Shown here piece by piece: positions 5,150 through 36,525 of a DNA stretch of 45,732 nucleotides. Below the pieces are notes generated by a model that was not told the origin of the DNA, made no database searches, and worked only from the letters and a program-made list of their open reading frames with translations. Both the position numbers and the translations under genes were made by a program. The first letter of the stretch is position 1, and each line of letters starts with the position of its first letter. This stretch comes from Candidatus Limicola stercorigallinarum. Its GTDB lineage: Bacteria; Actinomycetota; Coriobacteriia; Coriobacteriales; Coriobacteriaceae. The stretch lies in contig DVID01000011.1 of NCBI GenBank assembly GCA_018711625.1, forward strand, positions 1 through 45,732. The letters are read 5' to 3'.

Positions 5150-5289
5150 ACTCATGCCGGAAAACGGTGCCAAGAAGCGGGTGTGCCGGATAGACTCGAA
5201 GCAGCCAGTGCCTGGACCTGCGCTTTTCTTAAGCACAAGCCCCGTCTACTCGGAGGATTTCAATTCTGGCACCGTTTTCCGTCATAAGT
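5150..5289 (-). repeat. GAGTAGAC hairpin element, copy A (140 nt)
   Basis: The 23-nt arms 5150-5172 and 5267-5289 are inverted repeats with two mismatches (shared core CGGAAAACGGTGCCA). Moving inward, both arms have exactly 15 nt and then an 8-nt box: GTCTACTC at 5244-5251 and its near-complement GGATAGAC at 5188-5195. The 48-nt loop, read on the minus strand, contains AAGAAAAGCGCAGGT, which aligns with the loops of the copies at 18510 and 36381. It lies between the convergent ferredoxin and 5359 genes. The ferredoxin gene already has a terminator, so termination alone does not explain it. Confidence 0.85.
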
Positions 5290-5358
5290 TTGCGGAAGGA
5301 TGTCTGCTGTGGACACGAGCCCGTCAAATGCACCCGGCTCCGCTGGCAAACCGCCCCC

Positions 5359-5943
5359 CTAGTAAGGCGCGCCAAGCGGTGGCAGCTGCTTGAGATAGGC
5401 CCACATGCGCTGCTTTTCGCGCGGAGAGGCGAGCGACGCCTCGAAACCATCGAGCGCAAGCACGCGCCTACCGAGTACGTGGGCCACGAGCCCCGGCTTG
5501 AGCATGGCCTCGTCAAACTGCTCAATCTGCGCAAGCGCATCACCATATGCCTCACGCATGGCATGCGCCGCCGTGTTATCGAGCAAAACCACCGCCTCAG
5601 GGTCCAGCGCCTCCAGGGCCTCGCGAAACACCTCGGCAGGAAGCAGCTCGCCTGTATCTGCCGCCGCGTGACCCGTCTCGCCCTCGCCCGCAACGGCAGC
5701 GAGGCAACAACAATCCTCGGGTGGCCAGCCTAGACGCGTTAACGCCGCGCGAAGCGCCGCGCCATCATTGCCTGCAAGAAGCTCTCCGCCCGCCCGCTCT
5801 TCCTGGTTGAGCTCGCCTTTCACCAGAACAATCGAGGATGTTGCGTTACCTGTCATGCGTACGCCGCGCTGCACCAGCCCGTCAAGCTCCTGTTTAAGTG
5901 CATCCACCAGTGCATTTGTTAGGTCTCGTGAAGAGATAGCCAT
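5359..5943 (-). CDS. Uracil-DNA-glycosylase-superfamily-like protein, function unproven
   Basis: A 194-residue soluble protein beginning MAISSRDLTNALVDAL. The ATG at 5943 has GGGGAGG four nt upstream; the open frame extends further but without a better start. The stretch ERAGGELLAGNDGAALRAAL followed by RLGWPPEDC resembles the first conserved block of family-4/5-type UDG folds, and PEAVVLLDNTAAHAM resembles their central strand-helix unit. The cysteines of FeS-type UDGs and a clear catalytic motif were not found, so this may be a non-catalytic or diverged member. Assignment is from remembered motif similarity only. Confidence 0.55.
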   Translation of the reverse strand: MAISSRDLTNALVDALKQELDGLVQRGVRMTGNATSSIVLVKGELNQEERAGGELLAGNDGAALRAALTRLGWPPEDCCCLAAVAGEGETGHAAADTGELLPAEVFREALEALDPEAVVLLDNTAAHAMREAYGDALAQIEQFDEAMLKPGLVAHVLGRRVLALDGFEASLASPREKQRMWAYLKQLPPLGAPY

Positions 5944-6177
5944 ACTGCCTCCCCAATCGTCCTCGCCATTGTACCCTCGCTGCGAGACGGATTGAACAGC
6001 CCTCATCGGCCCCGCCATCCCATTCCGTCAAGAGCGAATAGCAAAGAGGTAGCGAACTCGCGCCGCCCCACGCGCATATCGACCAAAACCAGCGCCGGGC
6101 AGCACCATGCGCGCCGTCCGTCCACCCGCCCGCGTCTGCCGGCCACGCCCCGTGCAACACGTGATGTTGACCAAATG

Positions 6178-6206
6178 TGCAACTCTCAAAATGAGTTGGG
6201 TATAAC
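6178..6206 (+). promoter_or_regulatory. Candidate trxA promoter with inverted repeat in the spacer
   Basis: TGCAAC (6178-6183), a 17-nt spacer and TATAAC (6201-6206) lie about 55 nt upstream of the thioredoxin start. An inverted repeat CAACTC-7 nt-GAGTTG (6180-6198) fills the spacer, a position suited to a repressor. The protein that would bind is not known. Confidence 0.4.
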
Positions 6207-6259
6207 GAGCACGTATCGCAACTCCAGGGTGTCATTACCCATTAGCCATAGGAGGAAAC

Positions 6260-6580
6260 ATGGCCGCAATCACCGAAGTCAACGCCCACACATTCGACGC
6301 CCTGCTCTCTGAAGAGCTCCCCGTCCTGGTGGATTTTTGGGCTCCTTGGTGCGGACCGTGTCGCACGGTTTCCCCGATTGTTGACGAGCTTGCCGAAGAG
6401 CTTGATGGAAAGCTCAAGGTAGGAAAGTGCAACGTTGACGAGAATCAAGACCTCGCCATGAAGTATGGCGTTATGTCCATCCCCACGCTCGTAATCCTGA
6501 AGAACGGCGTTGAGGCTGACCGCATTATCGGCGCCATGCCGAAGGCCCGTCTGAAGGCAGAGATCGAGAAGCACCTGTAA
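6260..6580 (+). CDS. trxA: Thioredoxin
   Basis: A 106-residue thioredoxin with the active site WCGPC (W30, C31, C34), the preceding VDFWAP strand and the cis-proline loop SIPTL near residue 76. It reduces protein disulfides in the cytoplasm, normally recharged by thioredoxin reductase, which is not in this window. Length is standard. The ATG follows TAGGAGGAAAC. It is monocistronic, with a promoter and terminator of its own. Confidence 0.97.
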   Translation: MAAITEVNAHTFDALLSEELPVLVDFWAPWCGPCRTVSPIVDELAEELDGKLKVGKCNVDENQDLAMKYGVMSIPTLVILKNGVEADRIIGAMPKARLKAEIEKHL

Positions 6581-6690
6581 GGGCGCGTTCAAAGGCGCCG
6601 CGCTGCAAGCTTTCCGAAGGCTCATAGAAGTCATCTAGCTCGCAGGACGCACAGCGCACTTTCCAGCGTCCCGTTATACGCCCCTTCCTG

Positions 6691-6721
6691 AAATGCGACG
6701 ACTCCGGTCGTCGCATTTTTT
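6691..6721 (+). terminator. Intrinsic terminator of trxA
   Basis: Perfect 11-bp stem AATGCGACGAC / GTCGTCGCATT with loop TCCG (6703-6706) and a T-tract, about 110 nt after the trxA stop. Confidence 0.92.
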
Positions 6722-6855
6722 CGTATCGGGTCTTCCTACACACGCCGTTCCATCGACCGCTCGCCGCCCTATTCATACCGCTCGCGCTTTTTCTCGACAC
6801 TCCGTACACATCCCCTTGATTGCTCCTCCATAATTGGGCGCGTTGCAAGAAATGC

Positions 6856-6886
6856 GGAAGGTAACTGCATTCCCGTAGGCCTAACC
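6856..6886 (+). promoter_or_regulatory. Ribonucleic antiterminator (RAT) bound by the LicT-type regulator
   Basis: The 31 nt fold as the RAT of the BglG/LicT family: GG, bulge A, AGG, loop TAA, CTGC, hairpin loop ATTCCC, GTAG, loop G, CCT, bulge AA, CC. The pairs are GG/CC, AGG/CCT and CTGC/GTAG (one G-U). The two asymmetric internal loops (A against AA, TAA against G) match the known family shape, while the middle stem is changed by compensating substitutions from the usual TTG/CAA. It overlaps the 5' arm of the following terminator at 6875-6886, so the two folds exclude each other. A possible -10 (CATAAT, 6829-6834) lies upstream. Inference: licT, in the same operon, controls this switch. 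Confidence 0.8.
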
Positions 6887-6951
6887 AAAATCTTGGGACT
6901 CCTGCCTTGGGGGCAGGTGTTCTCTGGCTTTTGGTTAGGCCTACTTTTTTT
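6875..6951 (+). terminator. Leader terminator of the alpha-glucoside PTS operon
   Basis: A perfect 16-bp stem (6875-6890 with 6929-6944, sequence GTAGGCCTAACCAAAA and its complement) is followed by seven Ts (6945-6951). An inner hairpin CCTGCC-TTGGG-GGCAGG sits in the loop. Its 5' arm shares 12 nt with the RAT, as in LicT/BglG/SacY-controlled leaders. Confidence 0.93.
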
Positions 6952-7028
6952 ATGTCGCCACCGCGCCACCGGCGCGCGCCGCCCGCTCCACGGGGGACCG
7001 AGCGGCTCGATAGAGAAAGGAATGCGTT

Positions 7029-7532
7029 ATGGGTCTCTTCTCCAATATCTTCGGCAAAGGAGGTGGCTCAGCTACCTCCGAGCGCATCGAAGTCACGTGC
7101 CCCCTCGCTGGTGAACTTGTAGACATCTCCACGGTCAACGACCCCGTTTTTTCCTCGCTCGCCATGGGCGACGGCGTCGCTATCAAACCCACCGAAGGAG
7201 TGCTCCTTGCACCCATCTCTGGCACCGTCGAAGCTCTCTTCCCCACCGGCCATGCCCTCGCCATCAAAGGTGACAACGGCGTCTCCATCATGCTGCACAT
7301 TGGCATCGACACCGTTGAGATGAAAGGCGACGGCTTCACCGCGCACGTAGCCGCGGGCGATCACGTATCTCGTGGACAGAAGCTTGTTGACTTCGACCTC
7401 GGCAAAATCGCACAGGCCGGTTTCGACCCCACCACGATGGTCATCGCGGCCGAGAACACATCGGGCAAAGCCCTGCACAAGCATGCGGGCGGAGCCGTCT
7501 CCACCACAGACATTGCCCTCTGGTTTGAATAG
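7029..7532 (+). CDS. crr: PTS glucose-family EIIA component
   Basis: A 167-residue EIIA of the glucose/sucrose class. H90 in SIMLHIGIDTVEMKG is the phosphorylated histidine and H75 (PTGHALAIKG) its partner. APISGTVEAL and FDPTTMVI complete the fold. It passes phosphate from HPr to the EIIB domain encoded two genes downstream, which lacks its own EIIA. A short Gly-rich N-terminus precedes the domain. GAAAGGA precedes the ATG. It is the first gene of the operon and follows the leader terminator directly. Confidence 0.95.
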   Translation: MGLFSNIFGKGGGSATSERIEVTCPLAGELVDISTVNDPVFSSLAMGDGVAIKPTEGVLLAPISGTVEALFPTGHALAIKGDNGVSIMLHIGIDTVEMKGDGFTAHVAAGDHVSRGQKLVDFDLGKIAQAGFDPTTMVIAAENTSGKALHKHAGGAVSTTDIALWFE

Positions 7533-7555
7533 CAGCCTGGCACGAAGGGATAGCC

Positions 7556-8410
7556 ATGCTCATCAAGCGCGTGTACAACAATAACGTCGCCATGGTCGTC
7601 GATGACCACGACGAAGAGTGCATCGCCATCGGGCGCGGCATGGCGTTTGGCCTCCATCCCGGCGACACGGTGGATGCATCAAAGGTGGAGCGCGTGTTTC
7701 ACCCCGAAAGTCCCGCCACCCTCGACCGCATCGAGCGGCTTGTTCGCACCATCCCCGTCGAGTATTTCACCATCGCCGAGGACATCGTGAACATGCTCCG
7801 CCGCGAGTCAAACCTCGAGGTGGGAGATGCCCTGCTTATCGCGCTCACCGATCACATCTCGCTTTCACTCGAGCGCGAGCGCGAAGGTGTCCCCTGCGAC
7901 AACCCACTCCTCATGGATATCAAGCGGTTCTACAAGCGCGAGTTTGAGCTTGCCGGACGCGCCGCCCAGATCATCGAAGAGCACACGGGCATTCGCATCT
8001 CCGAGGCAGAGCGCGGCTTCATCACGCTGCACATCGTTAACGCCTCTATGGGCCAGCGCGCCGACACCCTCGTACTCTCCATCAGTCTCATTCAGGATGT
8101 GTTGGACATCGTTGCACAGGAGTTCTCGCTCACCTACGACGAAAGCTCCATCCAATACGAACGATTCCTCCGCCACCTGCAGTTTTTTGCCATCCGCGTG
8201 CTCGACGAGAGCGCGGAGCAGTCGGAAGACACCTTCCTCTATCTCTTGGGTAAAGACCAGTACCCCGAAGCGCTCGCTTGCACCGAGAAGATCGGTGAGC
8301 ACGTGCGCCAGACCTTCGGCCGATCGGTCACCGACGCCGAAAAGGGATACCTGGTGTACCACATCATGAACCTTGTCAATGCATCCGAAAAAGAAGGGGG
8401 TTCGCAATGA
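7556..8410 (+). CDS. licT: LicT/BglG-family transcriptional antiterminator
   Basis: 284 residues: an RNA-binding CAT domain (about 1-55) and two PTS regulation domains (about 65-170 and 171-280). The four regulatory histidines fall at H100 (LTDHISLS), H159 (ITLHIVNA), H207 (FLRHLQFF) and H269 (LVYHIMNL), the numbering known from Bacillus LicT. The protein should dimerise when phosphorylated by the PTS in the absence of negative EII phosphorylation, bind the RAT at 6856-6886 and let transcription pass the leader terminator. Its stop overlaps the next start (ATGA), so translation is coupled to the permease. Confidence 0.93.
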   Translation: MLIKRVYNNNVAMVVDDHDEECIAIGRGMAFGLHPGDTVDASKVERVFHPESPATLDRIERLVRTIPVEYFTIAEDIVNMLRRESNLEVGDALLIALTDHISLSLEREREGVPCDNPLLMDIKRFYKREFELAGRAAQIIEEHTGIRISEAERGFITLHIVNASMGQRADTLVLSISLIQDVLDIVAQEFSLTYDESSIQYERFLRHLQFFAIRVLDESAEQSEDTFLYLLGKDQYPEALACTEKIGEHVRQTFGRSVTDAEKGYLVYHIMNLVNASEKEGGSQ

Positions 8411-10002
8411 AAGACAAGATCAAAGGCGCTTTGGAGGTGTTCTCGAAGTCGATCGTGCAGCCGCTTATGTACCTCTCGGTAGCGGGTATTCTGCTCATCA
8501 TCGGCATCTTGCTCACCAACAGCACCATCACAGGAATGCTGCCCTTCCTGCAGTCGGGCCCGTTCCAGCTCATCGGCAAGATCATCTACGACTCGCTGAT
8601 GTTCTTGGTGAACAACCTCTCGATCATCTTCTGCGTGGGCATCGCCGGCGCCATGGCCAAAAAGAACAAGGGCCACGCCGCGCTCATTGGCCTGATGTCC
8701 TTCTTCCTGTTCCTTGAGGCCAACAACATCACGCTTTCGCTCACCGGCGCCCTCGTGGACGCGGGCGAAAGCATGCTCGGTCTCACCGGCACGGGCCAGT
8801 CCACCATCATGGGCATCCAGGTGCTCGACACGGACGTGTTCGCCGGCATCATTGTTGGCAGCATCACCGGCGTGGTTTTCAACCGCTTCCAAGACAAGCA
8901 GTTCCCCATCGCGCTTTCCATGTTCTCGGGGGTGCGCTTCCCGTTCCTCATCATGATCCTCATCTCGTGGGTTCTTGGCTGGGGCTTCTGCTACATTTGG
9001 CCGCCCATCCAGGGCGCCATCGGTGCACTTGCTGGCCTCATTCAGGAGTCGGGCAACATCGGCCTCTTTATCTATGGCCTGCTCAACAAGCTGCTTGTTC
9101 CCACCGGCCTGCATCACCTCATTTACACCCCGTTCCAGTTCTCTGATGTGGGCGGCACGCTCACCCTCGGCGACACCGTTGTTGCCGGCGCATATCCCAT
9201 CCGTGTGGCCGAGATGGCCATGGAGGGCATGCCGTTCTCTGACAGCACCTACTTCAACAGCTACACCTTCAACAACCTCTTCCCCTACCTGGGCATTGGC
9301 CTTGCCTTCATCGTAACGGCCTATCCCAAGAACAAGGAGAAGACCAAGGCTGTCATCATCCCGCTCATCATCACCGCAATCCTTTCTTGCATCACGGAGC
9401 CCATGGACTTCCTGTTTGTGTTCGCTGCTCCCGTGCTCTTCGTGATCCACTCCATCCTCTCGGGCATCTCGCTCGTGCTGCTGAAGGTCCTCTCGATCCC
9501 GGCATCCACTTCGGGCGGCATCATCAACATCGTCGTATCGAACCTCGTGCTTGGTGTTGAGAAGACCAATTGGCCCATGATGTTTGTGCTCGGCGTCATC
9601 GTGGCCGTTGTGTACTTCCTGCTGTTCACCTTCCTCATCAAGAAGCTGAATCTGCACACCCCCGGCCGTGAGAAGGATTCCGAGCTCGTCGCTGCCGAAG
9701 CCGAGGGCGAAACGGTGGCCCAGCAGGTCACCTCGCAGGGCGCCGACGCCACCTCTGGCTCCGACGCCGCGGTGGTGGACCTCATCCGCGGCCTGGGCGG
9801 CAAGGATAACATCGAGTCGCTCGAAAATTGCTTCACGCGCCTGCGTGTGAACGTTAAGGACGAGAGCCTGGTGAACGAAGACCTTATCAACCACATGAAG
9901 AACAGCGGCATCATGCGGAAGGGTAAGGATATCCAGATCATCCTGGGCATGCAGGTTGCGCAGGTGCGCGGCCAGGTCGAGGAGGCCCTGGAGAAGATGT
10001 AG
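8407..10002 (+). CDS. PTS alpha-glucoside-type EIICB permease
   Basis: 531 residues. The N-terminal EIIC domain (about 1-410) is a multi-span membrane channel with family motifs such as GLHHLIYTPF and CITEPMDFLFVF. A low-complexity linker follows, then a C-terminal EIIB domain (about 455-531) with the phosphocysteine C475 in ESLENCFTRLRV. There is no EIIA domain; that is supplied by the first gene of the operon. It takes up and phosphorylates an alpha-glucoside. The specificity (maltose, isomaltose or another) is inferred from the GH4 enzyme encoded next and cannot be settled from sequence alone. Confidence 0.9.
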   Translation: MKDKIKGALEVFSKSIVQPLMYLSVAGILLIIGILLTNSTITGMLPFLQSGPFQLIGKIIYDSLMFLVNNLSIIFCVGIAGAMAKKNKGHAALIGLMSFFLFLEANNITLSLTGALVDAGESMLGLTGTGQSTIMGIQVLDTDVFAGIIVGSITGVVFNRFQDKQFPIALSMFSGVRFPFLIMILISWVLGWGFCYIWPPIQGAIGALAGLIQESGNIGLFIYGLLNKLLVPTGLHHLIYTPFQFSDVGGTLTLGDTVVAGAYPIRVAEMAMEGMPFSDSTYFNSYTFNNLFPYLGIGLAFIVTAYPKNKEKTKAVIIPLIITAILSCITEPMDFLFVFAAPVLFVIHSILSGISLVLLKVLSIPASTSGGIINIVVSNLVLGVEKTNWPMMFVLGVIVAVVYFLLFTFLIKKLNLHTPGREKDSELVAAEAEGETVAQQVTSQGADATSGSDAAVVDLIRGLGGKDNIESLENCFTRLRVNVKDESLVNEDLINHMKNSGIMRKGKDIQIILGMQVAQVRGQVEEALEKM

Positions 10003-10092
10003 GGGCCTCAGCCTGGGCGACCCCGTGCTCGCCCGGCCCCTTTGAACTCAGCGCTCGACCCACATCAATCTCTTACGACAGGAGTAGACACA

Positions 10093-11481
10093 ATGATCAT
10101 TACGTTAGCAGGCGGCGGCTCCACCTTTACCCCGGGCATTGTGAAGTCGATTGCACTTCGCGCCGACGAGCTTGAGGTTGACGAGATCCGCCTCTACGAC
10201 ATCAATGAGGAGCGCCAGCGCAAGGTGGGCGTGCTCGTTGACTGGATCCTCCATGAGGACCTCAAGCTCGACATCAAGCTCACCGTCACCACCGACAAGG
10301 CCGAGGCCTTCACCGACGCCTCCTTCATCTTTGCCCAGATGCGCGTGGGCGGCTACGCCATGCGCGAGCAGGACGAGAAGATTCCGCTGCGTCACGGCTG
10401 CGTGGGCCAGGAGACCTGCGGCTGCGGCGGCCTTGCCTATGGCATGCGCACCATCTTCCCCATGGTTGAGCTCATCGACGACGTGGAGAAATACGCCAAG
10501 CCCGACTACTGGATCCTCAACTACTCCAACCCGGCGGCCATTGTCTCCGAGGCCTGCCGCGTGCTTCGTCCCAAGGCGCGCATCATCAACATCTGCGACA
10601 TGCCCATCGCCATCATCGACGTTGTGGCAGCAGCCCTTGGCGTAAAGAAGCAGGACATTGTGTACGACTACTTTGGCCTGAACCACTTTGGCTGGTTCAC
10701 CTCCATCGAAGTCAATGGCGAGGAGGTCCTGCCCAAGCTGCGCGAGTACATCCACGAGCACGAGATCTTTATGCCCGAGGCGTTCCTGAAGGACAAGGGC
10801 GCGCTCATCAAGCCCAACAAGACTGAAGAGAAGAAAGATGGCGAGGAGGGCGAGCAGAACCGCCACCTCAAGGGCAGCTGGTATTACGTGTGGAAGGGCG
10901 TCTACGAGATTATGGAGCTCTTCCCCGAGTACCTGCCCAACACCTACCTCAACTACTACCTGCAGCAGAAGGAGTTCGTGGAGCACTCCAACCCCGAGCG
11001 CACGCGCGCCAACGAGGTGGAGGAGACGCGCGAGAAGAACCTCTTCGACGGCATCGACCGCTACGAGGCAACCGGCGAGATTGACGAGAGCGTGTTCTAT
11101 GCAGGCAGCCACGGCGACTGGATCGCGGACCTGGCCATCGCGCTCAAGAACGACACGAAGGCGCGCTTCCTCGTCATCACCGAAAACCGCGGAGCGCTCC
11201 CCAACATGCCCTACGATGCCATGGTTGAGGTGCCGGCCTACATTGGCAAGAAGGGTCCCGAGGTCATTGCACAAGACCCCATTCCGCTCTTCCAGCAGGG
11301 TCTCATGATGCAGCAGCTTAACTCCGAGAAACTGCTGGTTGAGGGCGCCATCGAGGGCTCGTACGAGAAAGTGCTCAAGGCGTTCACGCTCAACAAGACC
11401 GTGCCGTCCATGACCGTTGCCAAAGAGGTGCTCGACGACATGATCGAGGCCAACAAGGGCTACTGGCCTGAGCTTAAGTAA
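10093..11481 (+). CDS. 6-phospho-alpha-glucosidase, glycoside hydrolase family 4
   Basis: 462 residues. The N-terminus IITLAGGGSTFTPGIVKS is the NAD-binding loop of GH4. C168 in ICDMPIAI and H198 in LNHFGWF are the divalent-metal ligands. The CDMP form is the one associated with 6-phospho-alpha-glucosidases, while beta-specific relatives usually have CN-P. The enzyme splits the phosphorylated disaccharide delivered by the PTS into glucose 6-phosphate and a sugar, using NAD and Mn2+. The start at 10093 has ACAGGAG upstream. It is the last gene of the operon. Confidence 0.93.
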   Translation: MIITLAGGGSTFTPGIVKSIALRADELEVDEIRLYDINEERQRKVGVLVDWILHEDLKLDIKLTVTTDKAEAFTDASFIFAQMRVGGYAMREQDEKIPLRHGCVGQETCGCGGLAYGMRTIFPMVELIDDVEKYAKPDYWILNYSNPAAIVSEACRVLRPKARIINICDMPIAIIDVVAAALGVKKQDIVYDYFGLNHFGWFTSIEVNGEEVLPKLREYIHEHEIFMPEAFLKDKGALIKPNKTEEKKDGEEGEQNRHLKGSWYYVWKGVYEIMELFPEYLPNTYLNYYLQQKEFVEHSNPERTRANEVEETREKNLFDGIDRYEATGEIDESVFYAGSHGDWIADLAIALKNDTKARFLVITENRGALPNMPYDAMVEVPAYIGKKGPEVIAQDPIPLFQQGLMMQQLNSEKLLVEGAIEGSYEKVLKAFTLNKTVPSMTVAKEVLDDMIEANKGYWPELK

Positions 11482-11565
11482 AGACTCAGACAAGTTTGGC
11501 GTAGATAGCGCGACATCTACTTGCCTGGCCAAAATGAGTTTGCGCGGCCCATATGCCGCGCGGAG

Positions 11566-11598
11566 AACGGGGTGACCTGCATGGTCGCCCCGTTTTTT
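11566..11598 (+). terminator. Operon-end terminator of the PTS operon
   Basis: AACGGGGTGACC (11566-11577) pairs with GGTCGCCCCGTT (11583-11594) through one G-U pair, loop TGCAT, then a run of Ts to 11598. Confidence 0.93.
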
Positions 11599-11613
11599 CT
11601 GGCTCATAGCTCG

Positions 11614-11825
11614 TTTTTAGACAGTTAGTTCAGATATGAACGATGGGGCTCCGCGGCAGGGCGGTGACGGGCTTCCGCGCCCGCAGGCACGCGACTAAAA
11701 GTATCCAAAACGGCTTCTTATGTGGAATCCGGATATAAAGCGATAACGCCTTTTGCATAATTCCGTCCGAGGGGCTCCGGAATTCCCGGCACCCACCGTT
11801 CATATCTGAACTAACTGTCTAAAAA
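11614..11825. repeat. 212-nt element with perfect 29-nt terminal inverted repeats (MITE-like)
   Basis: Positions 11614-11642 and 11797-11825 are perfect 29-nt inverted repeats (outer end TTTTTAGACAGTTAG). Just inside, TGGG matches again after one differing base. The 154-nt interior has no convincing gene. No target-site duplication was seen at the outer edges. The size and long perfect ends suit a non-autonomous insertion, though a structured RNA is possible. It lacks the GAGTAGAC boxes and fixed loop of the three hairpin elements, so it is a separate type. Confidence 0.7.
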
Positions 11826-12126
11826 TCAGGGTGCGCGAGAAAAAACTTGACTGAGAGGGCATGTCGGCACGCGTCGAACCAACCAGACGTGCTTTAGAGC
11901 GCACAAAATGACAAGGATTCGTGAGATCTCTGTGCGTATGGAGCTCGTAGAAGCTATGCCGGCGATATTGGAACGCGGTCTTTCCCGGATGCATTAATCA
12001 ACTCGTCAGAATCCGGAGGGTTCAAGATGCCCCACCGTGTAGTCTGCTAAGCCCCCAAAGGATACTCGTGGCACAATAGGTGAAGCATATACGGGGCGAA
12101 CGTGCCCCCTGAAGAAAGGAATCACC
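11826..12126. other. Intergenic stretch upstream of the nickel/hydrogenase cluster
   Basis: No supported gene. A 29-codon frame at 11908-11997 (MTRIREISVRMELVEAM...) has no ribosome binding site and was not recognised; it may be a remnant. A possible -10 (CACAAT, 12072-12077) and an inverted repeat GGGGC-6 nt-GCCCC shortly after it lie upstream of the 12127 gene. A classical NikR operator was not found. Confidence 0.35.
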
Positions 12127-12821: not shown

Positions 12822-12860
12822 CAGTACGCGACGAGACAGCGGAAAGGGCAGGAGGCAGCG

Positions 12861-15524: not shown

Positions 15525-15525
15525 A

Positions 15526-16232: not shown

Positions 16233-16234
16233 AT

Positions 16235-18397: not shown

Positions 18398-18509
18398 GAG
18401 CGCTCGGCACCAAACCGCAGGCGCGTCCTGCTCATGGTCCAACACCCCTCCGCACCTGTGGATATCACACTTGGGTAGCCTTTGGGCAGCGCGCTGAACG
18501 ACCCAAATG

Positions 18510-18654
18510 AAAATGAACGCGGTTTTCCGACGTTTTTGCCCGACCTCTTGAGTAGACACGCCCCGCGGCACAAGAAAATGCCTGGTAGAGGTGTTAGCGA
18601 TTTTCTGTCTACTCGACGGGCACGTCCAAAACGTCGGAAAACCGCGCTCATTTT
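18510..18654 (+). repeat. GAGTAGAC hairpin element, copy B (145 nt)
   Basis: The 27-nt arms 18510-18536 and 18628-18654 are inverted repeats with one mismatch (core CGCGGTTTTCCGACGTTTT). Exactly 13 nt inside each arm is a perfect box: GAGTAGAC (18550-18557) and GTCTACTC (18607-18614), with 49 nt between. The loop has AAGAAAATGCCTGGT, aligning with the loops of the other copies. Within the 13-nt gaps TGCCCG and CGGGCA can also pair. The right arm runs into TTTTTT. The element separates hypE from a truncated GH1 fragment whose reading frame ends 14 nt from the arm. Confidence 0.9.
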
Positions 18655-18667
18655 TTCTGAGCCTGAC

Positions 18668-25140: not shown

Positions 25141-25210
25141 CGCTATCTTGTTATTTCGACGTTGAATACGGTGTTTTTGGCCCCTTCAAGGTCAAAAAAA
25201 CAAGATAGCG
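25141..25210. terminator. Long hairpin between convergent genes, probable bidirectional terminator
   Basis: CGCTATCTTGTT (25141-25152) pairs perfectly with its complement at 25199-25210, and the stem continues with a few mismatches to about 25 bp, including GTTGAA with TTCAAG. A-rich and T-rich stretches flank the inner stem. It lies between the convergent acyltransferase and NRMT genes. It shares no box with the GAGTAGAC elements. Confidence 0.6.
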
Positions 25211-26488: not shown

Positions 26489-26505
26489 GCCTCACCGCCC
26501 GGCGC

Positions 26506-30121: not shown

Positions 30122-30183
30122 GCAAGCGCCCTCTCGACCAAGCACATGAGCGCGTCACCCGCACCACGCGGGACACGCTGGAG

Positions 30184-31572
30184 TTAGACAGCAGCACCGT
30201 CCTCGTCAGCAACCGTGGGCAGCGCCGCATCGTCGGGCATAGACACCTTTGAGAGATTCACCTGTTCGGCAAGCGTATCGTCGGTGGCTATCAAGTCCGA
30301 CAAGGTGACCAGAGTATAGCCTTCGTCCTGGAGCCTATCGATAAGCGCTGGCAGCGCTTCAACAGTCTGTTCACCCGTCGCAGCGTTGTCGGTGAGCAAG
30401 ATGATGTTGCCGCTGCGCACCGAACCGCACACGTCTTCAACAATCTGGTTTGCCCCCGGCAGCAGCCAGTCACCCGAGTCCACGTTCCACGACACCACGG
30501 CGCTCAGCATATCCATGGTCTCCGCCCAGTTCTCCAGCGAGAACGTGGCGTAAGGTGCCCGCAGCAAATGCACATCTTCGCCGGTAGCGCTCTTGATGGC
30601 ATCAAATCCACGCTGAATCTGCTGCCGCAGCTCATCACCGGACATCTTGGAAAGGTCGGTATCGCTATAGGAGTTTGAGCCCAATTCCATACCGGCATCG
30701 GCAAGGGTTTTTGCGGCTGCGGCATTCGCCTCAACGGCATCGCCTGAGAGGAAAAACGTGGCCTTCACGCCCTTTTCCTTCAGGATGTCCACAATTTGGG
30801 AGGTGTATGAGCTCGGGCCCTCGTCGAAGGTGATTGCCACGTATTTGCCGTCTTCAGGAGAAACCGAGGAGGCCGCGATCTCGCAATTCACCACTTCCTG
30901 CACCACGCCGCGGTCGGCAGTTTTGCCCGAGACCAATCCTGTCCATATCTCAGATCTGCCCGGGACGCCCCAGGTTTTCACATACTGGATGGCGCCCGTA
31001 CCCTTCACCGTCACCGTAGGTGCGATGGTGGTTGCGGCAACATCGTGCTCTTCGTAGGTGTCGGCTCCGTCCTCCACCGTGAGCTCTTCCCCGCCCGTGA
31101 GCGATGTGGACGAGAGCGCGTCCAGCGCCACAGCCTTACCGTCGAGCGTCACACTGTAGCGCTCGCCCCCGCGCTTCTCAAGCACGCTATCGTCCACTGC
31201 AAGCAAATTGCCCGCCACGGTGGTTTCATCGAGGCCCTGATCCTCAATAACCTGCTCGATGGTGGAGTTGATGCGCACCGATACCTCATTGCCATTGAGG
31301 GTGATGCCCACACCACGGTTCATGTACCAGATGACGCTCGCAACAAAAAAGAGGGCGGCGCAACCCACCGCAATGATGGCGTAGGGCTTGCGCGAGTTGT
31401 TCCCACCCGCGCGGAAGCCCTTGCGCTTGCGGCCAAACCCCTGAGAATGATTGAGGTACTGCGCGCCGGGACGCCGTTGCGCACGACGTCCAGGGCGCAG
31501 ATAGCCCTGATTTTTGGTATTGCGCCGCATGTGCGGCTTTTTGGGTGAGTAGGAGGTGGTGTAGTTAGGCAA
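30184..31572 (-). CDS. NodB-domain paralogue with lost metal ligands (probable pseudoenzyme)
   Basis: 462 residues with the same layout as the neighbour: basic N-terminus, one span (about 64-83), an extracellular domain with a region like the DUF348 unit of cell-wall proteins (ITLNGNEVSVRINST), and a NodB domain. The catalytic motifs are broken: TFDEGP (metal Asp to E251), SNSYSD in place of SH-x3-H (N300, D304), and LLTDNAA in place of LMHDGGG. RAPYATF is kept. It probably binds glycan or a partner without deacetylating. The start is TTG at 31572, supported by AAGGAG seven nt upstream. Confidence 0.85.
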   Translation of the reverse strand: MPNYTTSYSPKKPHMRRNTKNQGYLRPGRRAQRRPGAQYLNHSQGFGRKRKGFRAGGNNSRKPYAIIAVGCAALFFVASVIWYMNRGVGITLNGNEVSVRINSTIEQVIEDQGLDETTVAGNLLAVDDSVLEKRGGERYSVTLDGKAVALDALSSTSLTGGEELTVEDGADTYEEHDVAATTIAPTVTVKGTGAIQYVKTWGVPGRSEIWTGLVSGKTADRGVVQEVVNCEIAASSVSPEDGKYVAITFDEGPSSYTSQIVDILKEKGVKATFFLSGDAVEANAAAAKTLADAGMELGSNSYSDTDLSKMSGDELRQQIQRGFDAIKSATGEDVHLLRAPYATFSLENWAETMDMLSAVVSWNVDSGDWLLPGANQIVEDVCGSVRSGNIILLTDNAATGEQTVEALPALIDRLQDEGYTLVTLSDLIATDDTLAEQVNLSKVSMPDDAALPTVADEDGAAV

Positions 31573-31634
31573 TGGTTCTCCTTCTCAAAACGATATGTAG
31601 CGATGTGCGCCCTAGTTGCGCGACATGAATCCGC

Positions 31635-32405
31635 TCATCGTTTGGACTTCTTCTTAGCGGATGAGCCCGCGGATCCGCTCGCCTTTTTGTACTCCTCTTT
31701 GAACGCCTTGAACATGCCCTTGGTCTTGCCCAGCTGCTTGCCCAGGGCGCGGCTACCCTTCTCCACGGCAACCGAACCATGCTCGTCGAGCTTGCGAGCA
31801 CCCGATTTAACCTTGTCGCTGATCACCACAGTGGCCTCGGCAGCCTTAGCCGCCATACCGCCTGAAACATCAAGCTCCGCTGCGTCGTCGGATACTATCA
31901 TGGCGCCGTCGCGATATCCGCGTACCATGCTCGCGGGCATCTCAACCGTGCCCAGAAGCGCCGTTGCCGCAGCGCCCGCTGTCACGGTAAACGCCGTTAC
32001 GACCCCAGTCTTGGGGTTGAAGGCGGCATTGCTGCAGTAGCCCAAGGTCTTGCCGGCCTCGGTCACCACGTCCATCCCGCACCACACGATGCAGGCGTCG
32101 AGGTCCACACCCAAGCGCTCGGCCGCGGCTTTGTCGTACGAGGCCTTGCTATCGGCAACAACAAGCACCCCCTCGTACCACGAGAGGGCATCAAACGCCA
32201 CAAAGCGATCGGGTTGCTTGATCATGCCTGCGATATCGGGCGGCGACACCATAAAGCCAATCATGCGGCGGCCATCCGGCGTGAACACCGCAAGGTGAAT
32301 CTTGCCCAGCCGACGCGGCTCGCGAGGCGTTCCATCCTTACGGGTGAGCTTATCCTCGGGAACCGCGCGGTAAATCTTCAGGCCCTGGAAATCTCCGACG
32401 AGCAT
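31635..32405 (-). CDS. PRC-barrel-domain protein with basic C-terminal tail
   Basis: 256 residues, no signal peptide or membrane span. PRC-barrel-like units are seen early (KIYRAVPEDKL, RLGKIHLAVFTPDGRRMIGF) and again in the middle (MDVVTEAGKTLGYCSNAAF). The last 40 residues are Lys/Ser-rich (KEEYKKASGSAGSSAKKKSK). Its start overlaps the stop of the YtxH-like gene (TAATG), so they are coupled. The function is unknown; PRC barrels occur in RNA-processing and envelope-related proteins. Confidence 0.75.
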   Translation of the reverse strand: MLVGDFQGLKIYRAVPEDKLTRKDGTPREPRRLGKIHLAVFTPDGRRMIGFMVSPPDIAGMIKQPDRFVAFDALSWYEGVLVVADSKASYDKAAAERLGVDLDACIVWCGMDVVTEAGKTLGYCSNAAFNPKTGVVTAFTVTAGAAATALLGTVEMPASMVRGYRDGAMIVSDDAAELDVSGGMAAKAAEATVVISDKVKSGARKLDEHGSVAVEKGSRALGKQLGKTKGMFKAFKEEYKKASGSAGSSAKKKSKR

Positions 32406-32791
32406 TAGGCCTCGGGAGCAGCATCCGCCTGAGCGGCATCGTCGCTGGCAAATTCAACCTGGACATCCATCGCAGGGTGAATCGTGCCGCCAGAAACAGC
32501 CTCGTTCAGCGTCTCGCGCAGCTGATCCATACGCTCACGCGCCAGATCAACCTTGGCACGAAGCTCGTCGGTCTTGGCATCGACCATCGGGCCGAAATCG
32601 TTCAGAGCAGAACGGGCCTGCTCGGCACCCTGCTCGTACATGTCGCGCGCGTTATCCCACGCGTCATTGGCCATGTCGGCGGCCATCGCACGCGTCTCGG
32701 CGCCCGAACGCGGGGCGACCAAAATACCAATGATGGCACCGGCGGCGGCACCGATCACGGTACCTGCAACAAAGCTGAACGTTTTGCCCAT
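32405..32791 (-). CDS. YtxH-like small membrane protein
   Basis: 128 residues. One N-terminal glycine-rich membrane span (FVAGTVIGAAAGAIIGILVAP) followed at once by RSGAETRA, the hallmark of YtxH-domain proteins, then a long amphipathic helix and an acidic Ala-rich tail. YtxH-like proteins are often stress-induced; no activity is known. GTAGGAGGG lies upstream of the ATG. It is coupled to the PRC-barrel gene. Confidence 0.85.
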   Translation of the reverse strand: MGKTFSFVAGTVIGAAAGAIIGILVAPRSGAETRAMAADMANDAWDNARDMYEQGAEQARSALNDFGPMVDAKTDELRAKVDLARERMDQLRETLNEAVSGGTIHPAMDVQVEFASDDAAQADAAPEA

Positions 32792-33007
32792 GGCTATTCC
32801 CTCCTACGAGGATTATCTACGGATGGTTTCTCATTATACCCATATGGCACGCGCCTACGCGATGTGTGACGCCCGGAAGGATTCCGCACGGCCGCAAGCG
32901 GTTGGCAGGGCGGCAGTGAAGCCGGAACTTCAGGCCACAGGGCTCAAGCCGTCTGCAAGCGTATGCAGAGGCCGCGCGGGGCAAACCCCCTGCCGCCCCG
33001 CGGGCGC

Positions 33008-33688
33008 TTAGTACCCCACCTCGTGGCTTGCCGCAGCGGCGCCGCCAAACACCGGCTCCGAACCCTCCGGCTGGCCTTCAAAGGCAGGCGCCTCGGCGGC
33101 ATCAAAGTCGGGCTGTGCGTCGGCAGGAGCATCTACATCCTCAGCGGGAACCTCATCAGCAGAGGCATCTGCAGCCGCGGCCTCCGCACCCGCATTCTCC
33201 TCGGCCCCCTCGCCGCGCAACGAGAGCACCAGGCTCCGCAGGGCGGCAACGGTACCCGGAACATCCGGCGCCGGGGCGTCCGCATGCAAAAATGCCCAGT
33301 CCATCATGAAGGTGGCCGACGAAAGCGAGCCGATGGTCAGCGCGTCATCGGGGCACGAGAGCTCAACGTCAAAGAGGCGCGGGTCGTTCTCCACACCCTT
33401 GGTGCGCCCGCACGAAATGTCCCCCGCAAGGCCCGTCTCGTTCATGATCTCGACGGTCAGGTGCTCAAGCAGATGTGCCAGCTCGGTATCGCCCATGCAA
33501 TCTTGGAAGGCACGGCCGGCGTCGCCCAGGCACACGTGCTTGGCAATGGCGGGGGCCAGGTAATACACGCGAGCCGTGGCCTCAATATCCTCGGACGTCA
33601 TGAGCGGCATCCCCGGATTCACGAGCACGCGAGCGCGAATCTTGTCCTCACCCACGGTGATTTTCAAAATGTTGAACAGCTCTGCCAT
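33008..33688 (-). CDS. Protein with a cyanophycin-synthetase-N-domain-like segment and acidic tail
   Basis: 226 residues, soluble. The first 155 residues form a folded domain; LAHLLEHLTVEIMNETGLAG followed by ISCGRTKG resembles the HVIEH-AL-LQ-LAG-D--FGRTR block of the N-terminal domain of cyanophycin synthetase, where it helps primer binding. The ATP-grasp and Mur-ligase parts of that enzyme are absent. The last 70 residues are Ala/Asp/Glu-rich and probably disordered. Function is unknown; the similarity is recalled, not computed. Confidence 0.6.
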   Translation of the reverse strand: MAELFNILKITVGEDKIRARVLVNPGMPLMTSEDIEATARVYYLAPAIAKHVCLGDAGRAFQDCMGDTELAHLLEHLTVEIMNETGLAGDISCGRTKGVENDPRLFDVELSCPDDALTIGSLSSATFMMDWAFLHADAPAPDVPGTVAALRSLVLSLRGEGAEENAGAEAAAADASADEVPAEDVDAPADAQPDFDAAEAPAFEGQPEGSEPVFGGAAAASHEVGY

Positions 33689-33744
33689 GGCTCTCCGTTC
33701 TTCGAACCCTATCTGCTTTGGGCAGCTACACCGGCGGGGCGGCT

Positions 33745-35145
33745 CTAGGCGCGCTCACCCTCGGCATGCCTGCGCGAGGCGCTCTCGCTTGCCCCAGCGC
33801 TCGTCTTCTCGCCCATCGTATCATGCTCCTCGGCATCGGTGGCTTGCGGCTTGGACTCCTCGGGGGCTGTCACGCGAATGAGCGAGATGCGCTGGCCGCG
33901 CATGGACTGCACCTTGAACTTGTACCCATCCACCTCAAAGACCTCGCCGATGTTGGGCACGCCGTCGCAGATGTCGAGGATCCAGCCAGCGATGGTCTCG
34001 TAGTCGTCGCTCTCTTCGATGGGCCAGCCCAGCTCAACGGCATCATCGCACGAGAATCGGCCATCAACCAGCCATTCACGACGCGAGAGGCGCGTGAGGT
34101 ATTTGTTGTCGGGATCAAACTCGTCCTCGATCTCGCCCACAATCTCCTCAACGATGTCCTCCACGGTGATGAGGCCGGCCGTGCCGCCGTACTCGTCCAC
34201 CACAACCACCATCTGCTCGTGGGCCGTCTGCATCTCGGAGAGCAGCGGCAGGATGTCTTTGGTGTCGGGCACAAAGGATGCGTCGCGCAGGTGGGTACGC
34301 ACGTGCTCCTTGCCGCGGCTCGACAGCGCGAGCTCGATGAGGTCCTTGATGTGCGCGATACCCACGATGTTGTCGGGGTCCTCGTGATAGATCGGCACGC
34401 GCGAGTAGCCGGTGCGGCGCATCTCGTCGAGCACCTGCTCCACGGTGTCGGTGTCTTCGGCCATCGTCACATCCACGCGCGGCACCATGACCTCACGCGC
34501 CACTGCATCGCCCAGGTCGAAGATCTCGTGGATCATGCGCTTCTCTTCATCGAGCAGGGTGTCCTGCTCCGAGACCATGTACTTGATCTCTTCCTCCGAG
34601 ACATTCTGGCGATCGTCCGCGCTCTTGATGCCTAGGATGGCGGAGATGCCGTTGGCAGAAGCCTGCGTGAGCCACACCAGCGGCTTGGCAATGCGGCGGA
34701 AGACCATGATGGTGCCCGCGACAGACTTTGCCATGCCCTCGGCGTCCGAGAGGCCGATGCGCTTGGGCACGAGCTCGCCGATGACGATGGAGAGATACGA
34801 CACGATGAGCGTAATGATGATGGGCGCTGCCAGCGGCGCCACAGCGGTGAGCGGCGCCAGACCAAACGACTCCATCCAGCTGGCAAGTGGGTCGGAAAGC
34901 GTGTTGGACGAGACCGTGGCCGAGAAGAAGCCGACGAGCGTGATGGCAACCTGGATGGTGGCCAGGAAGTCCGTGGAGTCCGACGCCAGCTCAAGCGCCT
35001 GCACCGCGCGCTTGTCGCCCTCCTCGGCGTCGTGCTCGAGCGAAGCACGCTTCGCCGTGGTGAGCGCCATCTCGGACATGGAGAAAAAACCGTTCAGCAC
35101 GGTGAGCAATATCGTGGCGACGATAGAAAACACAATCATGCTCAT
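33745..35145 (-). CDS. CNNM/CorC-family (hemolysin C-like) membrane protein
   Basis: 466 residues. A DUF21 membrane domain with about three to four spans (1-180; NGFFSMSEMALTTAKR, IVIGELVPKRIGL), a CBS pair (about 205-330; MVPRVDVTMAEDTDTVEQVL and MVVVVDEYGGTAGLITVEDI), and a C-terminal CorC-HlyC domain (about 350-430). CNNM/CorC proteins take part in Mg2+ and Co2+ export or Na+/Mg2+ exchange. An Asp/Glu/Ser-rich tail follows. The ATG at 35145 is preferred over a TTG at 35187 that lacks a ribosome binding site, though the nearest GGGAGG is about 15 nt away. Confidence 0.88.
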   Translation of the reverse strand: MSMIVFSIVATILLTVLNGFFSMSEMALTTAKRASLEHDAEEGDKRAVQALELASDSTDFLATIQVAITLVGFFSATVSSNTLSDPLASWMESFGLAPLTAVAPLAAPIIITLIVSYLSIVIGELVPKRIGLSDAEGMAKSVAGTIMVFRRIAKPLVWLTQASANGISAILGIKSADDRQNVSEEEIKYMVSEQDTLLDEEKRMIHEIFDLGDAVAREVMVPRVDVTMAEDTDTVEQVLDEMRRTGYSRVPIYHEDPDNIVGIAHIKDLIELALSSRGKEHVRTHLRDASFVPDTKDILPLLSEMQTAHEQMVVVVDEYGGTAGLITVEDIVEEIVGEIEDEFDPDNKYLTRLSRREWLVDGRFSCDDAVELGWPIEESDDYETIAGWILDICDGVPNIGEVFEVDGYKFKVQSMRGQRISLIRVTAPEESKPQATDAEEHDTMGEKTSAGASESASRRHAEGERA

Positions 35146-35293
35146 GGATACGAAATCAAACCTCCCAAACAGGGTGAAAAATAACAACGCTGCCGGACAT
35201 TGGGCATTCGCCGGGCGGACGGCAGGCGGGGCTTCTCTTTGGGGTCACGACCAAGACGCTGTCGCGACATCCCCACAGAGCAACGCGGCTGTG

Positions 35294-36154
35294 CTAAATC
35301 ACGTACAGGATCACCGCCATAAAGATGAAGACGCTCCCCGCGAGCACCCAGAGGTGCCACACGCTGTGCATATAGCGGATCTTCTTCATAAGGTAAAAAC
35401 CGGTACCGATGGTGTAGCAGATGCCACCCACGGTAAGAAGCGCAAGCGCCACCGGGTCGAGCGACCCTATGAGCTGGGGCAGGCGGAACACCACGAGCCA
35501 TCCCATGATGAGATAGATGAGGATGGTGACCCAGCGCGGCTGACGCTGTCGGCCGATAATCTCAAACGAAATGCCCGCGAATGCGAGTGCCCACACCGCC
35601 ACAAAGAGCAGCACGCCACCGTTTTCGATGAGCGTGATCAGGCAAAACGGCGTATAGCTGCCTGCGATGAGCAGATAGATGCAGCTGTGGTCGATAGTGC
35701 GGAAGATGCGCTTGGCGGCCGGCACCTGGATGGCGTGGTAGAGCGTCGACGCAAGATATTCCAGGATGAGCGTCACGCCGAATACAATGGCCGACGCAAT
35801 ATGCGTGGGCGCGGCACCGCCCAGGGCGGCCTTCACAATAAGGAGCACGAGCCCTGCGATGGCCAGCAGCACACCTAAGCCATGCGTGATGGAGTTGGCG
35901 ATCTCTTCGCCGAGGGTGTAATGAGGAAGCTCGCGGCGCTCACGACCCGACGAGCCCTTGCGCTCGCGATGCGGAGGACGAGGGCACTTCCGCCGCCGCA
36001 TGGGGCACGAAGCGCAGATGTCATCGACCGCCTCGTCGGCAGCGTCGCAGTCGGCAACGTTGCCTTCCTGAGGCAGCGATGCAGGTTCATGCGCGGGCGC
36101 GTCGTGCGCGCCCGAGGTACTTCGCGATGTTGAACTGTCGCCTGATGCGGACAT
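35294..36154 (-). CDS. Hemolysin III / PAQR-family membrane protein
   Basis: 286 residues. A hydrophilic N-terminal extension of about 75 residues contains a Cys/Arg motif (CASCPMRRRKC), unusual for this family. Seven membrane spans follow with the conserved PAQR features: EIANSITHGLG, STLYHAIQ, DHSCIYLLIAGSYTP and the C-terminal HSVWHLWVLAGS; the histidines and Asp form a zinc-type site. Bacterial members have been linked to membrane fluidity and ceramidase-like hydrolysis; hemolytic action is not implied. GGAGG lies 12 nt before the ATG. Confidence 0.88.
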   Translation of the reverse strand: MSASGDSSTSRSTSGAHDAPAHEPASLPQEGNVADCDAADEAVDDICASCPMRRRKCPRPPHRERKGSSGRERRELPHYTLGEEIANSITHGLGVLLAIAGLVLLIVKAALGGAAPTHIASAIVFGVTLILEYLASTLYHAIQVPAAKRIFRTIDHSCIYLLIAGSYTPFCLITLIENGGVLLFVAVWALAFAGISFEIIGRQRQPRWVTILIYLIMGWLVVFRLPQLIGSLDPVALALLTVGGICYTIGTGFYLMKKIRYMHSVWHLWVLAGSVFIFMAVILYVI

Positions 36155-36251
36155 AAGCGTGTATGTTCCTCCAAAATAGACTGCTCATAACTATAGCAGA
36201 AGCCTTATATCAACGCGAGAACCACCGCAGGGCGCAGGTGAGCGGATGGTT

Positions 36252-36305
36252 GGAGACGGGGGTGTTTCGTCCACGGACGGATGGGGACGGGGTCGTTTCA
36301 TCCAC
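36252..36305. repeat. Tandem direct repeat, including copy 2 of the dispersed GGGGACGGGG repeat
   Basis: Two 23-nt units, 36252-36274 and 36283-36305, are 19/23 identical (GGAGACGGGGGTGTTTCGTC and GGGGACGGGGTCGTTTCATC, each ending CCAC). The second, extended to 36279-36303, matches the reverse complement of 21432-21455. They open the gene-free stretch 36155-36748. Confidence 0.75.
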
Positions 36306-36380
36306 CCAGGACCCGCGAGCTCTCTGGGCGGGAGATGCGGCCCGATCGGGAGGGTCCCGGTACCCCACGGGTGTTCCGGC

Positions 36381-36525
36381 AAAAAAGTACGTCATTTCAG
36401 TACGCGATGCGCGATTCCGTGAGTAGACGCGGCTTGCGGAGGCGCGCCAACTGCGGTTTTGTTGAATGCGGGCGGCTGCCTGCTCGGACAAAGCCGAATT
36501 ACGTACTGAAATGACGTACTTTTTT
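36381..36525 (-). repeat. GAGTAGAC hairpin element, copy C (145 nt)
   Basis: Perfect 24-nt arms at 36381-36404 and 36502-36525 (core GTACGTCATTTCAGTACG with an outer A6/T6). Exactly 16 nt inside each arm is a box: GAGTAGAC (36421-36428) and GCCTGCTC (36478-36485, two changes from GTCTACTC). The 49-nt loop, read on the minus strand, contains AACAAAACCGCAG at the same offset as AAGAAAA in copies A and B. It lies between two same-strand genes, so convergent termination is not the reason for its presence. Confidence 0.9.

What the first reader, a model, noticed from the sequence alone, without database searches (positions are those of the whole stretch)
5150..36525. A family of ~140-145 nt hairpin elements with GAGTAGAC boxes, fixed geometry and copy-specific stems
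Three intergenic elements (5150-5289, 18510-18654, 36381-36525) share one plan: a 23-27 nt arm, an identical gap on both sides (15/15, 13/13, 16/16 nt), an 8-nt box GAGTAGAC with its complement GTCTACTC (up to two or three changes in one box), and a loop of 48, 49 and 49 nt. When oriented, the loops align around AASAAAA at offset 14-15, often followed by CGCAG. The arm sequences differ from copy to copy, yet pair within each copy. A transposon end would be conserved between copies. Pairing without sequence conservation points to a structured RNA, a palindrome-dependent mobile DNA, or a DNA structure read by a protein. The family was not recognised as a described one.
Basis: partly seen in the sequence, partly recalled or inferred. 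Interest (0 to 1): 0.88.

Follow-up and report, generated by a model that had tools for sequence, protein, structure and literature searches.

The report
Palindromic DNA repeats of Collinsella relatives
The three hairpins belong to a large, apparently undescribed family of non-coding palindromic repeats scattered between genes in Collinsella and its relatives; they resemble the REP repeats of other bacteria, and a jumping gene of the IS110 family inserts precisely into their conserved centre.

Summary
The three elements belong to a non-coding family with about 30 copies in this 1.96-Mb Coriobacteriaceae draft genome. A covariance model finds it in 57 of 58 other sampled genomes of the family and a few of other families. 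Geometry is near-constant: in all 11 copies of one arm type the arms start 107 nt apart. Arms are not copy-specific; they come in types (11 and 14 copies of the two commonest here). Types differ from each other but pair within each copy. The most widely shared part is an asymmetric core, AAcAAAAsCGCAGGTAGA. Pair changes include direct A-T/T-A and G-C/C-G swaps, G.U excess is small, and one orthologue has its interior inverted. This suggests DNA-level arm copying (template switching) more than an RNA. Copies favour convergent gaps (19 of 35), show no target duplication, are missing at some orthologous sites, and have slow-evolving inner arms at one tested site. An IS110-family element sits in the core at 23 of 23 junctions, as IS621 does in E. 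coli REPs. Best reading: a REP/REPIN-like mobile palindrome family. Its usual partner, RAYT, was tested and not supported; the mobiliser is unknown.

The parts
5148..5291 (-). Element E1 (arm type CATGMCGGAAAACGGTGCCA); oriented by its core on the - strand
   Evidence: second copy of this arm type at G000 C26:17484
5188..5195 (.). E1 left box GGATAGAC
5216..5230 (-). E1 core AAGAAAAGCGCAGGT
   Evidence: 0 mismatches
5244..5251 (.). E1 right box GTCTACTC
18509..18655 (+). Element E2 (arm type A, CGGTTWTCCGACGTTTT; 11 copies in the genome)
18550..18557 (.). E2 left box GAGTAGAC
18572..18589 (+). E2 core AAGAAAATGCCTGGTAGA
18607..18614 (.). E2 right box GTCTACTC
36381..36525 (-). Element E3 (arm type GTACGTCATTTCAGTACG); oriented by its core on the - strand
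   Evidence: related arm at G000 C5:16360
36421..36428 (.). E3 left box GAGTAGAC
36449..36463 (-). E3 core AACAAAACCGCAGTT
   Evidence: 1 mismatch
36478..36485 (.). E3 right box GCCTGCTC

Best explanation
The elements are a family of compound extragenic palindromes: REP/REPIN-like non-coding DNA repeats of Coriobacteriaceae. Most are about 145 bp: two inverted arms, two inverted boxes, one asymmetric core. Inferred mechanism: arm types spread as small populations of non-autonomous mobile DNA whose whole length can fold into one hairpin in single strand. Copies survive mainly behind genes, where they do little harm. Arm complementarity is kept by DNA-level processes (template switching between the arms during replication, which also inverts the interior) and by selection on the inner arms. 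The conserved core serves as the target of an IS110-family insertion sequence. Shown: the family, its geometry, arm types, positions, absence at some orthologous sites, slow inner-arm evolution at one site, one interior inversion, and precise IS110 targeting. Inferred: mobility itself, hairpin formation in the cell, template switching. The mobilising enzyme is not identified.
For: Multi-copy, with two arm types at 11 and 14 copies in one genome and other types in relatives. Arm-to-arm start distance 107 in all 11 type-A pairs. Over 88 rows, arms pair 92% with their own partner and 26% with partners of elements with unlike arms (the register was chosen to favour own pairing, so 92% is somewhat biased up). 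Convergent-gap enrichment 19 of 35 versus 58 of 301, p = 2e-5. Element missing at the orthologous interval in G001 (two G000 sites), in G045 and in G035. In genus g18 the box is an inverted copy of the arm in five copies read, so each half is itself a REP-like hairpin. One orthologue has its interior inverted; template switching between inverted repeats is stated to homogenise arms and invert spacers (PMC8604942, start of abstract in the listing). IS110 in the core at 23 of 23 left junctions, like IS621 in E. coli REPs (PMC11208160, passages and reference titles) and other REP-specific IS (PMC1525189, abstract).
Against: No RAYT link: none of 20 Y1_Tnp loci examined has an element within about 1.5 kb, and the single RAYT-like gene of this genome is flanked by a different repeat; seven genomes of the family have elements but no Y1_Tnp match (G011, G014, G015, G020, G021, G023, G030). 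No target-site duplication above shuffles. No autonomous copy for the one arm type searched in each of G000, G037, G046 and G098. No transposition event was seen; absences could be losses. Inner arms evolve slowly in place (4 of 38 columns variable versus 22 of 55 flank columns), which a dead selfish copy would not need.
Confidence: 0.58

Rival explanations
1. Host-domesticated DNA site, such as a nucleoid or chromosome-organising site like the E. coli BIME/RIP elements (recalled): proteins bind arms, boxes and core as one complex, and arm types follow the specificity of arm-binding proteins.
For: Near-constant spacing despite diverged interiors; inner arms evolve slowly at orthologous sites; no gap inside the element in 15 orthologues of one site; some copies are about 10 bp shorter on each side, near one helical turn (L059, L111).
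Against: Copies in a single-contig Collinsella-like genome are not evenly spaced by eye (G037 positions; no test run). Several arm types coexist in one genome. No lone arm-A site was found in G000. Two G000 sites are empty in G001.
Confidence: 0.2
2. Structured RNA, or a bidirectional transcription terminator / 3' UTR element working as RNA.
For: Covariation beyond shuffles (13 pairs with both sides changed, 0 of 500 shuffles). Position behind genes. In several Collinsella copies the core forms a GC hairpin flanked by A and T runs. G.U exceeds A.C, 48 to 30 in the arms (p = 0.054) and 64 to 39 in the boxes.
Against: The strong G.U bias expected of a selected RNA strand is missing (expectation from general knowledge; no known RNA was run as yardstick). 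Direct A-U/U-A and G-C/C-G swaps are common. A core helix is not predicted in the arm-type-A consensus. E1 already lies beyond an ordinary-looking terminator at about 5098-5128. Template switching can give the same covariation without RNA function (listing). No credible Rfam match.
Confidence: 0.12
3. Classical MITE: terminal inverted repeats moved by a DDE transposase encoded elsewhere.
For: Inverted ends, small size, multi-copy, non-coding, several types per genome.
Against: No target-site duplication above shuffles in 25 copies (ends taken from the model hits, so the exact ends are uncertain). In a MITE the ends are the shared part, but here ends vary between types while the core is shared. 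The only long arm-flanked unit found is an IS256 inserted into a copy, with its own ends and an 8-bp duplication read by eye.
Confidence: 0.08

Closest known systems
REPINs (inverted REP doublets with RAYT; PMC3116915, passages read)
   Same: Inverted conserved ends, more variable spacer, fixed end-to-end distance, several groups per genome, extragenic, whole unit can fold as one hairpin
   Different: About 145 bp with an added box pair and a conserved asymmetric core; no RAYT association found; arms vary widely between types; tens of copies rather than hundreds
REP / BIME / RIP elements (GTAG- and CGTC-tagged REPs, PMC3733652, passages read; RIP recalled)
   Same: Extragenic palindromes, often inverted pairs around a middle, targets of IS elements
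   Different: A half-element hairpin is seen only in the g18 relatives (arm and box complementary); GTAG occurs in the GAGTAGAC box and in the core, not shown at the foot of a REP stem
E. coli REP as target of IS621 (IS110 family; PMC11208160, passages and reference titles)
   Same: An IS110-family element inserts at one exact place in a repeated palindrome
   Different: Different repeat, different IS; matching of a guide RNA to the core could not be shown (only 6-nt complements)
MITEs / Correia-type elements (recalled)
   Same: Short non-coding units with inverted ends
   Different: No target duplication found; ends vary, middle conserved

Membership tests
REPIN | Two inverted conserved ends at fixed distance with variable spacer | tested here: met
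   (107 nt in all 11 type-A pairs)
REPIN | Mainly extragenic | tested here: met
   of 38 elements examined, 1 overlaps a predicted CDS and 37 do not (overlaps up to 40 nt were tolerated; home-made gene caller); the two weakest hits were not included
REPIN | Associated RAYT gene flanked by the same REP | tested here: not met
   0 of 20 Y1_Tnp loci examined carry an element (one locus per genome; one search listed more matches); seven genomes of the family have elements but no Y1_Tnp match
REPIN | Excision or transposition intermediates | not testable with these tools
   no sequencing reads available
REP (GTAG/CGTC) | 20-40 bp palindrome with a GTAG or CGTC tag at its foot | tested here: inconclusive
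   GTAG lies in box and core by eye; half-element hairpin only in g18
REP | Target of specific IS elements (a loose criterion) | tested here: met
   23 of 23 IS110 left junctions in the core motif
MITE | Target-site duplication | tested here: not met
   mean 2.68 nt versus 2.63 shuffled, 88 of 200 shuffles as high
MITE | Autonomous relative with the same ends | tested here: not met
   one arm type searched in each of 4 genomes; other types not searched
Known structured RNA | Match to an Rfam covariance model | tested here: not met
   (window, gathering threshold): 0; (20 loci, E up to 1): the one match overlapping an element is a microRNA family at 25.9 bits against a gathering score of 230 (L057)

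The most novel reading that the evidence does not exclude
A new class of mobile palindrome in which the ends are replaceable and the middle is the identity: arm sequence is rewritten (mutations copied across the stem by template switching, interiors exchanged and inverted between copies), while an unknown core-reading or hairpin-reading enzyme, neither RAYT nor a DDE transposase, spreads the units, and IS110 elements have specialised on the core.
Probability: 0.28. Interest if true: 0.8.

Novelty: new variant of a known kind. Interest (0 to 1): 0.6.

Why it matters
Collinsella is a common gut genus, and this is an abundant repeat family in its intergenic DNA. It offers many arm types, with orthologous sites across dozens of species, in which arm copying, interior inversion and interior exchange can be read directly. 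That makes it a test bed for how palindromes keep their pairing without RNA function. The precise IS110 landing site adds a pairing of a bridge-RNA recombinase family with a repeated palindrome in Actinomycetota. It also warns that covariation in intergenic hairpins does not by itself show a structured RNA.

Tried and rejected
RAYT as mobiliser: PF01797 matches in 36 of 60 relatives, but 0 of the 20 loci examined carry an element nearby (model R1 is centred on one arm type and could miss others), and the RAYT-like gene of this genome has its own, different repeat. Autonomous version: an arm pair 1.65 kb apart in G098 is an IS256 (PF00872) inserted into a copy, with TCGACATG duplicated. IS110 as origin of the family: rejected as such, since G037 and G042 have 23 and 29 cores and no copy of that IS end. 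Guide RNA of the IS: only 6-nt complements of the target in its non-coding ends, uninformative. Rfam: no credible match. Viral contigs: 0 for one pattern; phages: no match to E2; plasmids, one Collinsella copy as query: one record, the 899,693-bp circular 'plasmid 6' of Collinsella aerofaciens, which carries argS and rho beside the element. Arm typing by clustering gave 27 groups over 88 rows, but this is rough: some groups are the same arm in a shifted register, the largest merges several types, and at least one element is counted twice. Core helix: seen in several Collinsella copies, absent from the type-A consensus. Counts per genome are not copy numbers: palindromic copies are hit on both strands and 32 candidates were scored per genome; I read only about 30 of those matches as sequence. 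For the site test flanks of six sites were prepared and two were sent. In the context count the two weakest hits (L092:18654, L116:12340) were left out, and 3 of 38 elements could not be classed: one overlaps a predicted gene, two lie at the end of the fetched sequence. In the G.U/A.C count 4 elements of ambiguous direction and those without a findable box or arm were dropped; 78 remain. Orthologous comparison with G001 and G002 used only 20 fetched regions around their own elements, so it is a partial and biased sample.
Full report
WHAT WAS CHECKED. The window is the whole contig C1 of a 1,955,970-base, 49-contig draft genome called G000. The three elements are present as described. blastn with E2 finds copies on other contigs and in one of the two same-genus genomes. 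The arm CGGTTATCCGACGTTTTG, allowing 3 mismatches, occurs 23 times in G000: 11 pairs plus one site in a contig overlap (C25 repeats the end of C27). The distance between paired arms, start to start, is 107 nt in all 11 pairs. Fourteen copies (11 from G000, 3 from G001) align over 147 columns without a gap, although the interiors are much diverged.

INDEPENDENT TEST. A covariance model built from those 14 copies, which include E2 but not E1 or E3, finds E1 (E 7e-12), E3 (E 4e-11) and twelve G000 copies of a second arm type, B (TTTTCGATTTGTTGCAGTTT). With two more from the core search, type B has 14 copies. The E1 arm recurs at C26:17484 and an E3-like arm at C5:16360; a fragment at C11:58360 is below the control threshold. 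So arms are shared within types. The model matches 65 of 98 sampled relatives at E up to 0.01: this genome, 57 of the 58 others of its family (all but G004; a few only weakly, for example G048 with one hit at 0.0013), and 7 of other families of the order, two of them by one weak hit each. The numbers per genome in that table are not copy numbers, and I read only part of the matches as sequence. Named carriers are Collinsella tanakaei, C. stercoris, C. provencensis, Collinsella sp. An2, Enorma massiliensis, E. phocaeensis and one uncultured Coriobacteriaceae bacterium (10 stretches).

ANATOMY. From outside in: an arm of about 18-28 bp; an unpaired spacer of about 13 nt; a box (GAGTAGAC/GTCTACTC, or CGACCATG/CATGGTCG in many Collinsella copies); a loop holding an asymmetric core AAcAAAAsCGCAGGTAGA. 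The core is the most widely shared part. The pattern AANAAAANCGCAGGT with one mismatch occurs 29, 18, 29, 23, 6 and 4 times in G000, G006, G042, G037, G095 and G004; the reversed control gives 0, 0, 1, 0, 0 and 1. I fetched 41 such cores (10 in G000, 28 in G042, 3 in G095). At 26 of 41, flanking inverted arms score above the control's 95th percentile, at 21 above its maximum (263 control positions); 15 do not. In several Collinsella copies the core continues into an inner hairpin such as AAAACCGCAGG-TAGAACG-CCTGCGGTTTT, but this helix is not in the type-A consensus. In genus g18 of another family the box is an inverted copy of the arm (TCGAGTCTGTACTTTT-N13-AAGTACAGACTCGA; L238, L242, L243, L254, L255), so each half is itself a hairpin. 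Some copies are shorter by about 10 bp on each side (L059, L111).

PAIRING. In 88 rows the left arm pairs 92% with its own right arm (lowest 67%) and 26% with right arms of elements with unlike arms (highest 58%). The register was chosen by own pairing, which favours the first figure. In the 14-copy alignment 13 pairs show changes on both sides and 0 of 500 shuffles reach this. Many double changes are direct swaps (A-U to U-A in 6 copies at column 17; G-C to C-G in 5 at column 7 and 3 at column 14). Over 78 oriented elements, departures are 48 G.U against 30 A.C among 2026 arm cells, and 64 against 39 in the boxes (p = 0.054 for the arms). This is a lean towards the core-defined strand, but a selected RNA strand would be expected to prefer G.U much more clearly (general knowledge; no yardstick RNA was run). 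Template switching between inverted repeats is stated to homogenise arms and to invert spacers (PMC8604942, start of abstract in the listing; also PMC8794818, listing). Both outcomes are seen here.

ORTHOLOGOUS SITES. At one Collinsella locus I could read 15 genomes (of 22 loci tried). In 14 a second element is present with the same or nearly the same outer arm. The interior is of kind alpha in 9 and of kind beta in 4; in 1 (L135) alpha is present inverted. In the fifteenth (G045) both elements are missing and another hairpin is present. At a second site, 15 orthologues (12 distinct) carry the element with no gap inside it. The inner 19 arm positions on each side vary at 4 of 38 columns, flanks at 22 of 55, the interior at 41 of 100; the outer 10 positions on each side vary at 8 of 20, like the flanks (p = 0.0014 against flanks and 0.0004 against the interior). 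G035 lacks this element and has a different hairpin there. At the first locus arms diverge by 0.03-0.08, the spacer between elements by 0.225, flanks (partly coding) by 0.09-0.13. Between G000 and G001, two G000 sites lack the element in the orthologous interval of G001 (259 against about 506 bp and 117 against about 570 bp). At the E1 site G002 has an element with a different arm type beyond the same gene end and terminator; the other flank of E1 lies about 4.5 kb further in G002. Gains and losses cannot be told apart here.

CONTEXT. With a home-made gene caller, 35 of 38 elements could be classed: 19 between convergent, 13 codirectional, 3 divergent genes, against 58, 162 and 81 of 301 gaps of at least 160 bp (p = 2e-5 for convergent). 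E1 and E2 lie between convergent genes, E3 between codirectional ones. E1 lies beyond an ordinary-looking terminator. No target-site duplication exceeds shuffles in 25 G000 copies. The one annotated named case lies between argS and rho of C. aerofaciens with no feature annotated under it.

IS110. At the second site, G047 and G049 carry an insertion (1560 bp in L351) exactly in the core: AAAACCG | IS | CAGGTAGA. Its protein matches PF01548 and PF02371, the IS110 family. The left end of this IS occurs 23 times in 6 of 42 genomes of the genus. In 23 of 23 the preceding bases are AAAACCG with at most one change. In 16 the known Collinsella arm is visible upstream, in 4 another arm with GAGTAGACTTTTTTG, and in 3 no arm is recognisable in the 60 nt shown (arms read by eye). 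The right junction CAGGTAGA was read in three copies (L351, L352, L139). Several are the same site in different species, so independent insertions are fewer than 23. IS621 of E. coli, also of the IS110 family, uses REPs as target (PMC11208160, passages and reference titles), and other REP-specific IS are listed in PMC1525189 (abstract). Complements of the target in the IS non-coding ends reach only 6 nt, which shows nothing.

MOBILISER. RAYT was tested because REPINs are linked to it. PF01797 matches in 36 of 60 relatives; G004, without model hits, has none; but G011, G014, G015, G020, G021, G023 and G030 have elements and no match. No element lies in any of the 20 Y1_Tnp loci examined. The RAYT-like gene of G000 is flanked by a different inverted repeat with GGGGACGTGTTCC. 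An arm pair 1.65 kb apart in G098 is an IS256 inserted in a copy. The mobiliser remains unknown.

LITERATURE. Searches for Collinsella with palindromic/intergenic/repeat, with REP/REPIN/MITE terms, REPIN with RAYT, and Collinsella aerofaciens with small RNA gave no description of this family in the held open-licence library. PMC8040213 reports 250 palindromic candidate RNAs from human microbiomes; Collinsella appears there once, for a candidate upstream of ribosomal protein L7/L12 (passages). Its supplementary tables were not looked at, so overlap cannot be excluded. PMC3733652 and PMC6006769 do not mention Collinsella or Coriobacteria in the main text.

VERDICT. Real and widespread, and best explained as REP/REPIN-like mobile palindromes of Coriobacteriaceae with replaceable arms and a fixed core. 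It works like a REPIN, but is not filed as one because the RAYT link was tested and not met.

Noticed in passing
36584-36661: A second hairpin 58 bp from E3 (34-nt arms, 10-nt loop, GGGGACGG...CCGTCCCC) resembles the repeats seen around the RAYT-like gene of this genome; similar half-repeats lie next to several Collinsella copies.
   Followed up: partly
11614-11825: 34-nt inverted arms (97% complementary) around 144 nt; no clear GAGTAGAC box or core. Possibly a longer relative or another repeat family.
   Followed up: partly
6875-6944: Perfect 16-bp inverted repeat with 38-nt loop followed by a run of T, perhaps a terminator or another palindrome type.
   Followed up: no
25141-25210: 26-nt inverted repeat (88% complementary) with 18-nt loop between genes.
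   Followed up: no
L140 (G045), L235 (G037), L353 (G040): Other recurrent Collinsella hairpins with arms such as TTGCGGTGAAATACGGACTG or TTGCGGTGGAATA and a short loop, beside or in place of the elements.
   Followed up: no
L054, L058, L061, L063: Several copies lie within about 1 kb of tRNA genes, including a repeated tRNA array in Collinsella genomes; not tested for enrichment.
   Followed up: no
1667-4693: Large open frame with S-layer homology and YDG domains, a likely surface protein.
   Followed up: no
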